Shown here: piece after piece, positions 37,935 through 43,211 of the stretch
How positions within the stretch are numbered: position 1 is the first letter of the stretch
Layout of the letters: each line of letters begins with the position of its first letter
Assembly: GCA_015066665.1 (NCBI GenBank)
Contig: SVNX01000002.1
Coordinates: forward strand, 1 to 64,000
DNA from: Ruminococcus sp.
GTDB lineage: Bacteria > Bacillota > Clostridia > Oscillospirales > Ruminococcaceae
DNA length: 64,000 nt
Direction: 5' to 3'
Program-made: the position numbers and the translations under genes
The notes under the pieces: model-generated
The model's database searches: none
What the model was told of the DNA's origin: nothing
The model's input: only the letters and a program-made list of their open reading frames with translations

Positions 37935-38009
37935 GTGGTTTTTTCAATTTTTTTTTTTTCAAAACGATCGTTTTGTCTCCCCAAAAAGGGGCGAGGGGGA
38001 CATCTCCCC

Positions 38010-39074
38010 TCACACCTTCTCCACCTCGAAAAGTTCGGGCGGATAGAGGTAGTCCTCACCGCTGTCATCAACAATCCGGAACCAGCCCCGCTCAATCGAC
38101 AGCACTTTATACCGGCTGCCGGCTGTCAGGGTCAGAATGCTTGTGGAGCCCGTGTAGCGCACCCACATATCCCCCGTATCCATGGCCTTTTCGCTCGGTC
38201 CGTCATACTGGGTGAGGTCAATCACAGAGGGGGCATTGCGGCGTCTCTGGAGGTTCTCTTCCTTGCGTCTGCGTCCGTCTGCGATCAGCTCATGGAGCGT
38301 TTCTTCATCGCTGCGGTCGAGCACATCACGATAGGCCTGCAGATGGCCGATGAGCACATCCAGCTCCCCAAGCAGACTCTCACGGTTTTCGAGGAAGAGC
38401 ATGGTCCACATGTCTTCATTCATCGTAGCGATGCGGGTCATATCGTGGAAGCTGCCGCCGGAAAAACCGCTTTCCAGCTCGATCACGGGGCTTTTCACAT
38501 AGGCACTCGACACCACATGTGCAAGCTGAGAGGTATAGGCGATCATGCGGTCGTGGAGCGCGGGCGTCGTCACAACAAATCTGCGGAAGCCGATCTGATG
38601 GGCAAAATTCTTCACCTGTGCGGTCACAGCCTTCGGGGTATCCGGCAGCGGTGTCAGGATGAAGTTGGCGCCCTGGAACAGGTTCTCATCCGATGCACCG
38701 AAGCCAAAGCGTTCCTTGCCGGCCATGGGATGGGTGCTGAGGTAGTGCACGCCGTGTGCGGCGCAGATTTTTCCCATAGTTTCGGGGATATCCGATTTGA
38801 CACCGGCCACATCGATCACGATCGTACCAGGGGTCATGGTATGCACATGCTCCGTCACCCATGTGCGGAGGATCTCGGGATAGAGCGACACCACGATCAG
38901 ATCAAATCCGGTACAGTCATCTGTCACAACGCCCTCGATCGCATGCTGATCCAAAGCCTGTGCAATGACCTGCGGATTACGGTCACAGCCATACACACTG
39001 TGCTCGGTGAAAGTATGAATCGCCTTGCAGACCGATCCGCCGATCAGACCGAGTCCCACAACCAGAATCTTCAT
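38010..39074 (-). CDS. tyrA: prephenate dehydrogenase with C-terminal SH3-like extension
   Basis: A 354-residue protein. The NAD-binding motif VVGLGLIGGS is at 5-14, and the catalytic region has STHPMAGKE and GFSGGSFHDMTRIA. It oxidises prephenate to 4-hydroxyphenylpyruvate in tyrosine synthesis. After about residue 275 there is a linker and a roughly 50-residue beta-rich segment (YTGSTSILTLTAGSRYKVL, GWFRIVDDSGEDYLYPP) that looks like an SH3 fold in place of the ACT domain often found in TyrA. It lies 115 bp downstream of the repeat-protein gene. Confidence 0.9.
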   Translation of the reverse strand: MKILVVGLGLIGGSVCKAIHTFTEHSVYGCDRNPQVIAQALDQHAIEGVVTDDCTGFDLIVVSLYPEILRTWVTEHVHTMTPGTIVIDVAGVKSDIPETMGKICAAHGVHYLSTHPMAGKERFGFGASDENLFQGANFILTPLPDTPKAVTAQVKNFAHQIGFRRFVVTTPALHDRMIAYTSQLAHVVSSAYVKSPVIELESGFSGGSFHDMTRIATMNEDMWTMLFLENRESLLGELDVLIGHLQAYRDVLDRSDEETLHELIADGRRRKEENLQRRRNAPSVIDLTQYDGPSEKAMDTGDMWVRYTGSTSILTLTAGSRYKVLSIERGWFRIVDDSGEDYLYPPELFEVEKV

Positions 39075-39188: not shown

Positions 39189-40304
39189 TTACAGTCCGCC
39201 GCTCTGCACGGAGACATTCCGGATCCGCACGAACTGATAGTCATCCCCCTCGGGATGGAGTGTGATTTCCATGGTTTTCTTCTGTGCGCCATCCGCACCG
39301 ACCTTCTCCTGCCAGCCGGCCACATCGCCGATGTAGTCGACCATCACGACATAATCGCCGCTGCCGTCACGCTGAATATCCTGCACGGACGGACTATAGG
39401 AAAAGATGACGGGCGAAGCGGGCACATTGAATGTATCCGTCACTTCGTCATAGAAGAACAGCTCACCGGCCGCACGCAGGGTCATCATCCCGCCGTCGGG
39501 CACAGTGCCGAACATCTCCCCCGCTTTGCTGCGGACATCCGCTGCGGGGATGGTCAGCATATCGAAGCTCTCGGGATAGGCAGACAGATCCTCATACATA
39601 ATGATGCTGATGACGGCTGCTGCAAGCATGCCTTCGGCATCGGCTTCCGCTGTAGTTTCAAACGGCGCCAGATCGACCACGGCAGCCGGATACAGTGCCG
39701 TTTCAAGCTTGGTGCTGAGTGATGAGCCGTCTGCGAAACGCTTCACGGCACGCACGCCGTAGATCGTGCAGGTGACCACACCCACACCGGCAAGCACTGT
39801 ACAGAGCACGCCGACGGTGAAGTAACGATTGCGCTTCCAGAACTGTTTTCTTCTGCGGGGCGGTGCAGGTTCCGGCTGGGGTTCAGCCTTGATGTCAGCC
39901 AGTGCGTCCGCATCCTCATCGAATGCTTCCCGCATGGCGGACAGGAAATTCTGCGGTGTCCCCCCCTGTGCGGCATCCGACTGCATCCGGCCGCTCACAA
40001 CGGCCGCACCCTCGGATTCCATATAGCTTTCAAACTGTGCGAGGACATTTTCCGGAATGGCAGATTCTTTCTTTTTCCCGAATTTCTTCCGTTTTCCGTC
40101 CTGTTTCGACACTTCCGGCGCAGGCGGTTCCGCACACGGCGGCTCGGGTTCGGGAATCTCCTCTTCGTACAGCTCCTGTGCAAAGCGCTCTACGATATCA
40201 TCGGGGATCTCATCATCCGCTTCGTCTTCGAATGCGTCTTCATCATACGAATCATCCGCATCCCAGTCGTCGTCATCCCCGGTCAGTTCCGCATCAGTCA
40301 GTCT
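39189..40304 (-). CDS. C-terminal half of a repeat-rich membrane protein (in -1 frame)
   Basis: An open frame of 371 codons from the A10 tract (40304-40313) to the stop at 39189. It holds an acidic stretch (DDDDWDADDSYDEDAFEDE, about 10-28), a basic patch (KRKKFGKKK), one membrane helix (about 160-182, RYFTVGVLCTVLAGVGVV) and an extracytoplasmic domain of about 190 residues with no family I recognise. The only possible initiator is a GTG at 40112, without a good ribosome-binding site. The codons between it and the tract still read as sensible acidic protein, which suggests this is the continuation of the upstream ORF. The domain's function is unknown. Confidence 0.7.
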   Translation of the reverse strand, partial: RLTDAELTGDDDDWDADDSYDEDAFEDEADDEIPDDIVERFAQELYEEEIPEPEPPCAEPPAPEVSKQDGKRKKFGKKKESAIPENVLAQFESYMESEGAAVVSGRMQSDAAQGGTPQNFLSAMREAFDEDADALADIKAEPQPEPAPPRRRKQFWKRNRYFTVGVLCTVLAGVGVVTCTIYGVRAVKRFADGSSLSTKLETALYPAAVVDLAPFETTAEADAEGMLAAAVISIIMYEDLSAYPESFDMLTIPAADVRSKAGEMFGTVPDGGMMTLRAAGELFFYDEVTDTFNVPASPVIFSYSPSVQDIQRDGSGDYVVMVDYIGDVAGWQEKVGADGAQKKTMEITLHPEGDDYQFVRIRNVSVQSGGL

Positions 40305-41941
40305 TTTTTTTTTCGTGAGAAGAGTCCACGCAGGCCGCCCTTCTCTTTTTTCGGTTCTTCCGCCGGTACGCTCAAATGACGCAGGCGTGCCTTGCGGGGC
40401 TTGGGGGCCTCCTCTTCGGCATATTCCTCTGCCTCTTCGGCATCATCATAGGATTCATCGTATGCTTCCTCATAGGATGCATCGGCGGACTCATCATAGG
40501 GTTCCGCATATGCTTCCTCATAAGCCTCTTCCTCCGGCTCTGCGGGGGCTTCCTCATAGGTCTCGGGGGCCTCATACACCGGTTCGGCTTCCTTAGCAGC
40601 TGCGGCTTCACGCTTCTTGCGGATGGCATCGGCGATGGACGTATCACGGGGAATATCCGGCGGCAGCTCATCCGGCACGTTAATGTGCATGATCTTGCGC
40701 TTCTTCGGAGCGGGAGCAGGCTCAGGTGCGGGCGGTGCCGGTTCCTCGGGGGGGGCCGGCTCTTCCATCACAGGCGGCTCCGGCTCAAGGCCGATCAGTT
40801 CCTCAAAGGGCACGGGCGGTGTGAGGTCGATATCCTGCAGATCCTCCGGCAGCAGTGACTCATCCGGTACGGGCAGTTCCGGCTCTTCCATCTCAGGCGG
40901 TGCGGGAATATCATCCTCCGGCGGCAGCTCAATTTCCTGCGGCTCCTGTACAACCGGTGCCGGCTTCGGGCGGCGCTTGCGCTTACGCTTCGGACGGGGT
41001 GCGGGAGCAGGCTCTGCATCCATGAGATCAGGATCCGGCGGCAGTTCATCCGGTACTTCAATATGCATGATCCTGCGGCGGGGCTTCTCCTCCGTCACAG
41101 GCTCCGGATCCATGAGATCGGGATCCGGCGGCAGCTCATCCGGCACTTCAATATGCATGATCCTGCGGCGGGGCTTCTCCTCCGTCACAGGCTCCGGATC
41201 CATAAGATCGGGATCCGGCGGCAGTTCATCCGGTACTTCAATATGCATGATCCTGCGGCGGGGCTTCTCCTCTGTCACAGGCTCTGCATCCATAAGATCG
41301 GGATCCGGCGGCAGTTCATCCGGCACTTCAATGTGCATGATCTTGCGGCGGGGCTTCTCCTCCGTCACAGGCTCTGCATCCATGAGATCGGGATCCGGCG
41401 GCAGTTCATCCGGCACTTCAATGTGCATGATTTTGCGCTTGGGACGCTCGGGCTGTACCGGTGCTTCCTTCTCGCCGACATGGAAGGTCTTGGTGCGTTC
41501 CGGATCGACCGGACGCTTCTTGCGCTTCTTTCTGGGGCGATCGGAGACCGGACGGGGTTTCGGCTCGATGATCTGGTTTGGCTTGCGCTCCGCATCGAGC
41601 ATGGGCAGGGACTCCTCATCAAGCCGCTCATGCATCCGCACGGCGGGTGACAGGGAAGGCTCCTCAGAGAAATGGCTCACCGGCTCCGGAGGCGGAATGG
41701 GTTCGCGTCTCGGCGGAGGCGGGGGCGGTGCCGGTCTCTGCGGCGGTTCTTCTGCCTGCTTCTGAATGGTTTCCAATTCTACGCTGCGCAGGATCTCGTC
41801 CACACGGCGGCGGGAGGCTTCACTGGCAACTGGTTTTTTCGGTTCCTCGGGCGGCTGCGGTGCGGGAGCGGCTTTCCGGGTACGGAATCCCGGTGTCTCC
41901 AGCAGGCCGTTCAGCAGCTGATCAATATCGTTTGACTTCAT
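40298..41941 (-). CDS. Pro/Glu-rich cytoplasmic repeat protein (N-terminal half of a frameshifted gene)
   Basis: A 547-codon frame starting MKSNDIDQLLNGLLETPGF with GGAG 9 bp upstream. Residues about 30-160 are Pro/Arg/Glu-rich. At about 160-308 lie five 30-residue repeats built on IMHIEVPDELPPDPDLMD followed by EPVTEEKPR. A diverged copy (KIMHINVPDELPPDI) is near 413. The end is very acidic (YEEAYDESYDDAEEAEEYAEE) and stops two codons after a 10-A tract. There is no membrane segment in this half. The gene lies 19 bp after proA. No known family was recognised. Confidence 0.8.
   Translation of the reverse strand: MKSNDIDQLLNGLLETPGFRTRKAAPAPQPPEEPKKPVASEASRRRVDEILRSVELETIQKQAEEPPQRPAPPPPPPRREPIPPPEPVSHFSEEPSLSPAVRMHERLDEESLPMLDAERKPNQIIEPKPRPVSDRPRKKRKKRPVDPERTKTFHVGEKEAPVQPERPKRKIMHIEVPDELPPDPDLMDAEPVTEEKPRRKIMHIEVPDELPPDPDLMDAEPVTEEKPRRRIMHIEVPDELPPDPDLMDPEPVTEEKPRRRIMHIEVPDELPPDPDLMDPEPVTEEKPRRRIMHIEVPDELPPDPDLMDAEPAPAPRPKRKRKRRPKPAPVVQEPQEIELPPEDDIPAPPEMEEPELPVPDESLLPEDLQDIDLTPPVPFEELIGLEPEPPVMEEPAPPEEPAPPAPEPAPAPKKRKIMHINVPDELPPDIPRDTSIADAIRKKREAAAAKEAEPVYEAPETYEEAPAEPEEEAYEEAYAEPYDESADASYEEAYDESYDDAEEAEEYAEEEAPKPRKARLRHLSVPAEEPKKEKGGLRGLFSRKKKD
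41016..41460. repeat. 90-bp coding tandem repeat, five copies
   Basis: Five units with an exact 90-bp period (landmark GGATCCGGCGGCAG near 41030, 41121, 41211, 41301, 41391) encode 30-residue repeats in the minus-strand gene. Adjacent copies differ by only a few bases, implying recent duplication or homogenisation. The period and coding frame rule out CRISPR. Confidence 0.92.
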
Positions 41942-41960: not shown

Positions 41961-43211
41961 TTATCGGATCTGTCCGTTTCCGGTAATACGGTATTGAATC
42001 GTGGTCAGTGCCTGCAGACCCATGGGGCCTCTTGCATGCAGCTTCTGGGTGGAAATACCGATCTCTGCACCGAAGCCGAATTCCTCGCCGTCGGTGAATC
42101 GGGTGGAGGCGTTGACGTAAACAGCGGCAGAATCCACGCTGTTCTGGAAATATTCCGCATTGGCCATGGACTGGGTCACAATGCACTCGGAATGACGGGT
42201 GCTGTATCTGAGAATATGATCGACGGCTTCCTCAACGGAATCCACCACACGAATGGCGATCTTATAATCGAGGTACTCGGTTGCATAGTCCTCTTCCGTG
42301 GCGGGAATCACGCTCTCGCCGAGGATCTTCTGCACGGTCTCGCAGCCGTGGATTTCCACATTGTGTGCGGCAAATGCCGTCTTGATATGGGGCAGGAATG
42401 CGGGGGCAATGTCCTTATGTACAAGCAGCGTTTCAATGGCGTTGCACACGGAGGGACGCTGGGTCTTGGCGTTGTTGGCGATCTCCACAGCCATAGCGAG
42501 GTCTGCGGAAGCATCGACATAGACATGGCAGTTGCCGGCACCGGTTTCGATCACGGGCACGGTGGCCTGCTTCACGACGGCCTGAATGAGACCAGCACCG
42601 CCTCTGGGAATGAGGACATCGAGATAGCCGTTGAGCTTCATCATTTCGGCAGCGGTCTCACGGTCGGTCTTTTCCACAAGCTGCACAAGATCTGCGGGCA
42701 GGCCTGCGGATGTGAGTGCTTCACGCATCACGGACACAAGGCAGGTATTCGAGTGAATGGCTTCCTTGCCGCCGCGGAGAATGACCGCATTGCCGGCCTT
42801 GAGGCACAGGGCAGCCGCATCGACCGTCACGTTCGGACGGGATTCGAAAATAATGCCGATGACACCCAGCGGCACACGCACCTGACGGATGCGAAGGCCA
42901 TTCGGGCGGATCCACCCGCGGTCCTCGGTACCGATGGGATCCTCCAGTGCAATGAGCTTGCACACGGCATTTGCAATGCTCTGAATGCGGGATGCATCCA
43001 GACGCAGACGATCCTGCATGGCGGCACTCATGCCGTTCTCCACCGCTGCATCCAGATCCTTCCGGTTCTCAGCGATGATGAGATCGGTATTGGCCACGAG
43101 CGCATCGGAAATGGCCTGCAGTGCCTGATTCTTCAGGACGGTTCCTGCCTTTGCAGCGGCAGGCGCAGCGGCCTTTGCCTTGGCGCCAAGGGTTTCCATA
43201 TAGCTTGCCAT
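41961..43211 (-). CDS. proA: glutamate-5-semialdehyde dehydrogenase
   Basis: A 416-residue ProA that reduces gamma-glutamyl phosphate in proline synthesis. It has ESRPNVTVDAAALCLKAGNA and the aldehyde-dehydrogenase-like PVIETGAGNCHVYVD with the catalytic Cys near 257 (VCNAIETLLVH). GAGGAGG lies 6 bp upstream. It follows proB by 15 bp. The gene for the final step, proC, is at 60.4 kb. Confidence 0.95.
   Translation of the reverse strand: MASYMETLGAKAKAAAPAAAKAGTVLKNQALQAISDALVANTDLIIAENRKDLDAAVENGMSAAMQDRLRLDASRIQSIANAVCKLIALEDPIGTEDRGWIRPNGLRIRQVRVPLGVIGIIFESRPNVTVDAAALCLKAGNAVILRGGKEAIHSNTCLVSVMREALTSAGLPADLVQLVEKTDRETAAEMMKLNGYLDVLIPRGGAGLIQAVVKQATVPVIETGAGNCHVYVDASADLAMAVEIANNAKTQRPSVCNAIETLLVHKDIAPAFLPHIKTAFAAHNVEIHGCETVQKILGESVIPATEEDYATEYLDYKIAIRVVDSVEEAVDHILRYSTRHSECIVTQSMANAEYFQNSVDSAAVYVNASTRFTDGEEFGFGAEIGISTQKLHARGPMGLQALTTIQYRITGNGQIR

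What the first reader, a model, noticed from the sequence alone, without database searches (positions are those of the whole stretch)
39189..41941. One gene split by a 10-A tract: candidate programmed -1 frameshift, slippage or phase variation
The upstream ORF (41941-40298) stops two codons after a run of ten A (minus strand, 40313-40304). In the -1 frame the coding stretch continues without a stop through an acidic linker, a membrane helix and an extracytoplasmic domain to 39189. The downstream part has no ATG and no credible ribosome-binding site; its first possible initiator is a GTG at 40112, leaving 64 in-frame, protein-like codons unexplained. The tract offers A AAA AAA, a good slippery heptamer; adding one A by RNA polymerase slippage would have the same effect. 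The result would be two products: a soluble repeat-rich protein and a fused membrane-anchored form. A homopolymer sequencing error is the main competing explanation.
Basis: partly seen in the sequence, partly recalled or inferred. Interest (0 to 1): 0.72.

Follow-up and report, generated by a model that had tools for sequence, protein, structure and literature searches.

The report
One gene broken at an A-run
In a gut-type bacterium a membrane-protein gene that relatives encode in one piece is cut in two by a run of ten A's, probably bridged some of the time by slipping of the copying enzyme; a known kind of event that still needs RNA or protein proof here.

Summary
The upstream ORF (41941-40298, minus) ends one codon after ten A (40313-40304). 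The -1 frame then runs 370 codons to 39189 without a stop, and its first ATG/GTG/TTG is at 40112. This is one gene: of 19 genus genomes with the C-terminal domain, 14 keep it in one open frame, 3 are cut by contig ends, and 2 are split, this one and G002. None of 65 judgeable wider relatives is split. Both split genes break at their longest A-run (A10, A11), at different places, both need a -1 shift, and both would lose the membrane helix and outer domain. I favour RNA-polymerase slippage at a hypermutable A-tract giving a soluble short form and a minority membrane form, as measured for tssM1 (A11) and IS1447 (A9). Programmed ribosomal frameshifting is poorly supported. A consensus error or phase variation cannot be excluded without reads. 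Against me: G002 has another likely A9-broken gene (L315, by eye), and the hairpin 5' of the window tract is not significant.

The parts
40298..41941 (-). Upstream ORF, 547 aa: Pro/Glu/Lys-rich cytoplasmic region with conserved motifs and a 90-bp tandem repeat; ends FSRKKKD*
   Evidence: homologous to the N-terminal part of 12 single-ORF orthologues
40304..40313 (-). A10 tract (CGA AAA AAA AAA GAC), the slip site
   Evidence: CGA is used 0 times among 60 other Arg codons of the gene
40298..40300 (-). 0-frame stop TGA, one codon after the tract
40317..40345 (-). Predicted hairpin GAGAAGGGC...GACTCTTCTC ending 3 nt before the tract, -12.5 kcal/mol; not significant against synonymous shuffles
39189..40301 (-). 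-1 frame continuation, 370 codons plus stop: acidic linker, membrane helix, outer domain; no ATG/GTG/TTG before 40112
39192..39941 (-). Conserved 250-aa part: long helix (residues 39-88 of the model, holding the membrane span) and an alpha+beta outer domain
41961..43211 (-). proA (aldehyde dehydrogenase family by Pfam; the name proA is recalled, from family, sequence and the adjacent amino-acid kinase), conserved 5' neighbour
   Evidence: its C-terminus lies upstream of many relatives and of G002
38010..39074 (-). Prephenate dehydrogenase (tyrA), 3' neighbour; a similar protein start also follows the gene in G002 (by eye)

Best explanation
The two ORFs are one gene of an uncharacterised Ruminococcaceae-type membrane protein: low-complexity cytoplasmic region, membrane helix, outer alpha+beta domain. 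In this species its Lys patch has become a hypermutable A10 tract whose length puts the second half in the -1 frame. Most likely RNA polymerase slips on the tract, so a minority of transcripts carry a restored frame. Cells would then make mainly a 547-aa soluble protein plus some full-length membrane-anchored protein. Shown: the sequence, the single-gene ancestry, the retained coding of both halves, and a second split orthologue in G002. Inferred: slippage, its rate, and any use of the two products.
For: 14 of the 16 genus orthologues not cut by contig ends are one open frame, the window's own and G002 being the other two. Of 73 distinct wider relatives, 65 can be judged and none is split. The downstream 370 codons and conserved residues are intact despite lacking a start. 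G002, the row least like the window (37% identity), is split at A11 in the same direction with both halves otherwise open, after the same 5' neighbour. In the own genome none of the other 54 A>=8 runs clearly breaks a gene. Measured precedents: tssM1 A11, 20-25% (PMC4256274, passages); IS1447 A9 in Clostridium thermocellum, about 16% in each direction (PMC6211511, passages).
Against: No RNA, read or peptide data. The A10 tract is not conserved in position or length, so it may be a young accident. The assembly is a draft (77% complete, 40 contigs), and an A10 homopolymer is where consensus errors fall. In G002 a recombinase-like C-terminus (L315) also looks broken at an A9 in the -1 direction (by eye, resemblance recalled; Pfam did not settle it), so the G002 case may reflect that assembly or a general tolerance rather than this gene. 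The 5' hairpin is not significant in the window (546 of 3000 synonymous shuffles as stable), and two A8 runs of the same genome in open frames have hairpins of -13.4 and -13.5. In G002 a TTG overlapping the stop could allow re-initiation instead.
Confidence: 0.48

Rival explanations
1. Assembly or sequencing error: the true tract has another length and the gene is an ordinary single ORF.
For: 14 genus orthologues are single frames; neither half shows any other lesion; the tract is the longest intragenic A-run of a draft assembly; the other split genome has a second likely A-run break, L315.
Against: In the own genome no other A>=8 run clearly breaks a gene. Eight of nine neighbouring ORFs scanned on this strand give a family match in one frame. 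In-frame intragenic A10 runs are assembled in three other genus genomes (L138, L153, L145), and an A11 near the start of another G002 gene is in frame (L277).
Confidence: 0.27
2. DNA-level phase variation: cells differ in tract length and switch the membrane form on and off; the assembly shows an off allele.
For: An A10 tract in a gene with intact halves; a poly(A) tract in inlA is reported to vary about 1000-fold above the average point mutation frequency (PMC2831843, abstract). A C8 run lies in the same gene (40748-40755).
Against: No population data; tract not conserved among species. It can coexist with transcriptional slippage.
Confidence: 0.15
3. Programmed -1 ribosomal frameshifting on A AAA AAA.
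For: Heptamer in the right register; -1 direction in both split genes.
Against: No SD-like element in reach of the slip site and no unusually stable downstream structure. Long A-runs alone suffice for polymerase slippage.
Confidence: 0.05
4. Recent loss of function: the gene is becoming a pseudogene and only the short protein is made.
For: 19 of 38 genus genomes have no detectable homologue, so it may be dispensable, though many of these genomes are incomplete.
Against: No further stop in either half of either split gene; conserved residues kept.
Confidence: 0.05

Closest known systems
Citrobacter rodentium tssM1 (A11; PMC4256274, passages read)
   Same: Membrane-protein gene stopped shortly after a poly-A tract; an added A in the transcript restores the frame; a short and a full-length form; homologues elsewhere carry the missing domain.
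   Different: Unrelated protein family; slippage and the need for both forms were shown there, nothing is shown here; there the short form lacks only a C-terminal domain, here it would lack any membrane helix.
IS1447 transposase of Clostridium thermocellum (A9 after a stem-loop; PMC6211511, passages read)
   Same: A-run following a predicted mRNA stem-loop in a Clostridia genome; slippage fuses two frames.
   Different: Mobile element with two ORFs; here a chromosomal gene that relatives encode as one ORF. The hairpin here is not statistically supported.
Endosymbiont genes rescued at poly(A) tracts (seen only as a passage in the review PMC5009743; original PMC2567471 not held)
   Same: Frameshift at a poly-A run; slippage yields corrected transcripts.
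   Different: Those genomes are reduced and AT-rich; this window is 55% G+C and its assembly has only four A>=10 runs.

Membership tests
Genes decoded by transcriptional slippage at A-tracts (tssM1 kind) | A-run of 9 or more inside the gene, followed by an early stop in the 0 frame | tested here: met
   A10 and TGA one codon later
Genes decoded by transcriptional slippage at A-tracts (tssM1 kind) | Product of both frames is homologous to a single-ORF protein elsewhere | tested here: met
   12 genus orthologues match both halves in one ORF; 2 more are long single frames in which only the downstream half was matched
[quoted passage not shown]
   Window and G002 share gene, direction and domain split, but the tracts are not at homologous positions
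Genes decoded by transcriptional slippage at A-tracts (tssM1 kind) | Transcripts with altered A number, or two protein products | not testable with these tools
   No RNA or protein data
Programmed -1 ribosomal frameshift | Slippery heptamer X XXY YYZ in the 0 frame | tested here: met
   A AAA AAA in CGA AAA AAA AAA
Programmed -1 ribosomal frameshift | Stimulator: downstream structure or upstream SD-like element | tested here: not met
   Downstream z -0.83 (74 nt) and -1.55 (104 nt); no SD-like element by eye in the bases just 5' of the site. Pseudoknots were not tested
Phase-variable (contingency) gene | Tract length varies within the species | not testable with these tools
   One genome per species is held; no reads
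NTF2-like / VirB8-like bitopic membrane proteins | NTF2-like outer domain after one membrane helix | tested here: inconclusive

The most novel reading that the evidence does not exclude
An uncharacterised Ruminococcaceae membrane-protein family has twice, independently and at different points of its linker, acquired a poly-A slip cassette (hairpin plus A10 or A11, both -1). The cassette sets a ratio of soluble cytoplasmic form to membrane-anchored form: convergent evolution of transcriptional slippage as a topology switch in a conserved-locus gene of gut Clostridia.
Probability: 0.17. Interest if true: 0.65.

Novelty: new member of a known kind. Interest (0 to 1): 0.4.

Why it matters
If the tract slips in vivo, this is a chromosomal, non-mobile example in gut Clostridia of one gene giving a soluble and a membrane-anchored protein by RNA-polymerase slippage. 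Gene-calling pipelines would wrongly report it as two genes or a pseudogene. The second split orthologue makes convergence directly testable with metagenomic and metatranscriptomic reads. If it is an error or plain phase variation, it is a caution about homopolymers in metagenome assemblies.

Tried and rejected
A 5' hairpin as proof of a programmed cassette. Both tracts follow a hairpin (window -12.5 kcal/mol, gap 3; G002 -15.5, gap 1), and 12 other A8-A11 runs that I picked reached at best -5.9. But 8.65% of positions in the window gene are as good, and 0.37% in the G002 stretch. Synonymous shuffles match it in 546 of 3000 (window) and 27 of 3000 (G002). Two A8 runs of the own genome in open frames have -13.4 and -13.5 (one is clearly in a gene by eye, the other may be an antisense frame). 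The idea came after seeing the data, so it is kept only as a weak lead.

'No other A-run breaks a gene' was my first wording. On rechecking it holds for the own genome by eye, but not for G002, where L315 looks like a recombinase C-terminus broken at A9 (the resemblance is recalled; Pfam on the two pieces gave nothing above a cut-off). L279 turned out to have its own in-frame ATG. For this I lowered the best explanation from 0.50 to 0.48 and the novel case from 0.20 to 0.17, and raised the error rival from 0.25 to 0.27.

Close relatives with the same tract: none held; identities to the window in the domain are at most 52%. The first genome-contig scan with the single protein found nothing. The alignment scan gave 17 loci, all of contig lengths already seen among the G-handle loci: it adds names but no new gene.

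Function by family: no Pfam or NCBIfam match at its cut-off, no PDB sequence match up to E = 1, no convincing fold match. NTF2-like is a tentative label.

Census of A>=10 runs in the genus: 60 runs fetched out of a listing that itself was cut short. Three lie in frame well inside open frames (L138, L153, L145), two a few codons before a stop (L129, L133), one is unclear (L140); the others failed my length criterion, which misses runs near gene starts (for example L125, the same place as L277). Two out of two broken in this gene is too small for a firm statistic. Most T-sense frames of the own-genome runs were judged only from the length tables, five by eye (L239, L245, L296, L306, L308).

Print searches: 'transcriptional slippage' with 'Ruminococcus' gave 0 papers. 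Two broader searches listed nothing on this gene; only 10 of 91 papers were listed. Seen of papers: passages (PMC5009743, PMC4256274, PMC6211511), outline and the Results section (PMC1088944), abstract and outline (PMC2831843).

Full report
What is there. On the minus strand the ORF 41941-40298 encodes 547 aa and ends ...FSR KKK D stop. The codons are CGA AAA AAA AAA GAC TGA, with ten A at 40313-40304. The -1 frame reads on as KKK R LTDAEL... and gives 370 codons from 40301 to the stop at 39189. It has no ATG, GTG or TTG until GTG 40112; stop to stop it is 417 codons. The finding's description is right, except that the stop follows after one codon rather than two.

One gene. The downstream protein was found in 19 of 38 genomes of the genus, the window's own included (the profile search gave the same 19). 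Twelve orthologues carry both halves in one ORF. Two more (L018, L020) are long single frames of 935 and 967 aa, in which only the downstream half was matched within the fetched stretch. Three (L005, L015, L017) begin at a contig end and say nothing. The remaining two are the window and L022 (genome G002). Beyond the genus, 271 of 396 family genomes have the domain at E <= 1e-5. I examined 24 loci and 50 more (49 distinct genes, since L184 and L214 are the same place). Of these 73, six reach a locus edge and two (L203, L224) have masked bases across which the frame cannot be followed. None of the other 65 is split. No A-run longer than 8 was listed upstream of the domain's end in any of them. 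In many of them the ORF starts just after the proA-like gene, as here. So the family is a single gene with an N-terminal region of very variable length.

The second case. It is split at GTA AAA AAA AAA ACG ..., an A11 run (L022:1474-1484, L040:3697-3707). The continuation is again in the -1 frame and nothing else is broken. The tract is not at the homologous place. In the window it is in the basic patch after the LRHLS motif; in G002 it is further on, just before the FDASPDELAEM stretch. In both, the short product lacks the membrane helix and outer domain. G002 is the row least like the window (37% identity), so the two events are probably independent. A TTG overlapping the G002 stop, behind GAGGAAGAGG, makes re-initiation possible there (read); the window has nothing like it.

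How unusual. The own assembly has four A-runs of 10 or more. Three lie between genes by ORF inspection and this is the only intragenic one. All 55 A>=8 runs of the own genome were fetched (30 loci, 23 regions, two); 53 of them were put through a frame table and the two were judged from ORF lists. Those with a long frame on the A-sense side were read by eye. Besides the window tract none clearly splits a gene (a few, such as L231, L292 and L311, are unclear because I could not tell whether the frame is a gene). In G002 all 36 A>=9 runs were fetched (30 loci, five regions, one). By eye about eleven lie in frame inside or at the start of a plausible gene, one of them an A11 (L277) and one running into masked bases (L268). 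Two break a frame: the A11 of this gene and, probably, an A9 in a recombinase-like C-terminus, L315, also towards -1 (not settled by Pfam). So G002 may have a general problem or tolerance at A-runs, which weakens it as an independent witness. In the window gene, Lys is AAA 15 times and AAG 36 times elsewhere, and CGA is used in 0 of 60 other Arg codons. The tract is therefore not what this gene's codon use would give, but this was noticed after the fact.

Mechanism. An A-run of this length is expected to make RNA polymerase slip. A9 in IS1447 gave about 16% in each direction in Clostridium thermocellum (PMC6211511, passages), and A11 in tssM1 gave 20-25% with both products needed (PMC4256274, passages). 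[quoted passage not shown] The window and G002 meet that loosely. For ribosomal frameshifting the heptamer is present but stimulators are not evident. A hairpin 5' of the slip site, shown to promote slippage in a Roseiflexus IS (review PMC5009743, passages; the original paper was not held), is present in both. It is not significant in the window (546 of 3000 synonymous shuffles) and only moderately so in G002 (27 of 3000). Two A8 runs of the own genome in open frames have hairpins of -13.4 and -13.5.

Verdict. Single gene, real split in the assembly, slippage the most likely way both halves are still used, not proven. Sequencing or consensus error is the leading rival. Bench and read tests are listed. 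The kind of system is known, and this would be a new member in an uncharacterised family.

Noticed in passing
41008-41431 (-): 90-bp tandem repeat, 4.7 copies at 95% match, coding PRRRIMHIEVPDELPPDPDLMD(A/P)EPVTEEK; several relatives show the motif once, and some have other repeats (EEPVYA, EEPIA) in the same region.
   Followed up: partly
40748-40755: A C8 run (minus strand) inside the same upstream ORF: a second homopolymer in this gene.
   Followed up: no
genus genomes: The gene is undetected in 19 of 38 genus genomes (6 of 12 good-quality ones have it) although 271 of 396 family genomes do: a patchy distribution.
   Followed up: no
L315 near base 1293 (G002:C246): A second likely A-run break in G002: a site-specific-recombinase-like C-terminus (by eye, recalled) continues in the -1 frame after an A9.
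   Followed up: partly
L040:3697-3735: In G002 the 0-frame stop overlaps a TTG in the downstream frame, with GAGGAAGAGG a few bases 5': possible coupled re-initiation.
   Followed up: partly
37948-37959 (-): A12 run between the prephenate dehydrogenase gene and the L10 gene, just 5' of a strong promoter-like match (37934-37906, 11 of 12).
   Followed up: no
1938-1945 and 2044-2052: C8 and G9 runs on the plus strand close together, inside a 201-aa minus-strand ORF (1851-2456) without a Pfam match at E <= 0.001: possible phase-variable locus.
   Followed up: no
L138 and L153 (minus strand, near base 1155 and 1167 of the reverse complement): Polysaccharide-deacetylase-like genes (by eye, no family search) in two genomes share an in-frame A10 just after a dockerin-like segment.
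   Followed up: no
L129 (minus strand) and L133 (plus strand), near base 1195 and 1182: Related genes in two genomes have A10/A11 a few codons before their stop, next to the start of another gene.
   Followed up: no
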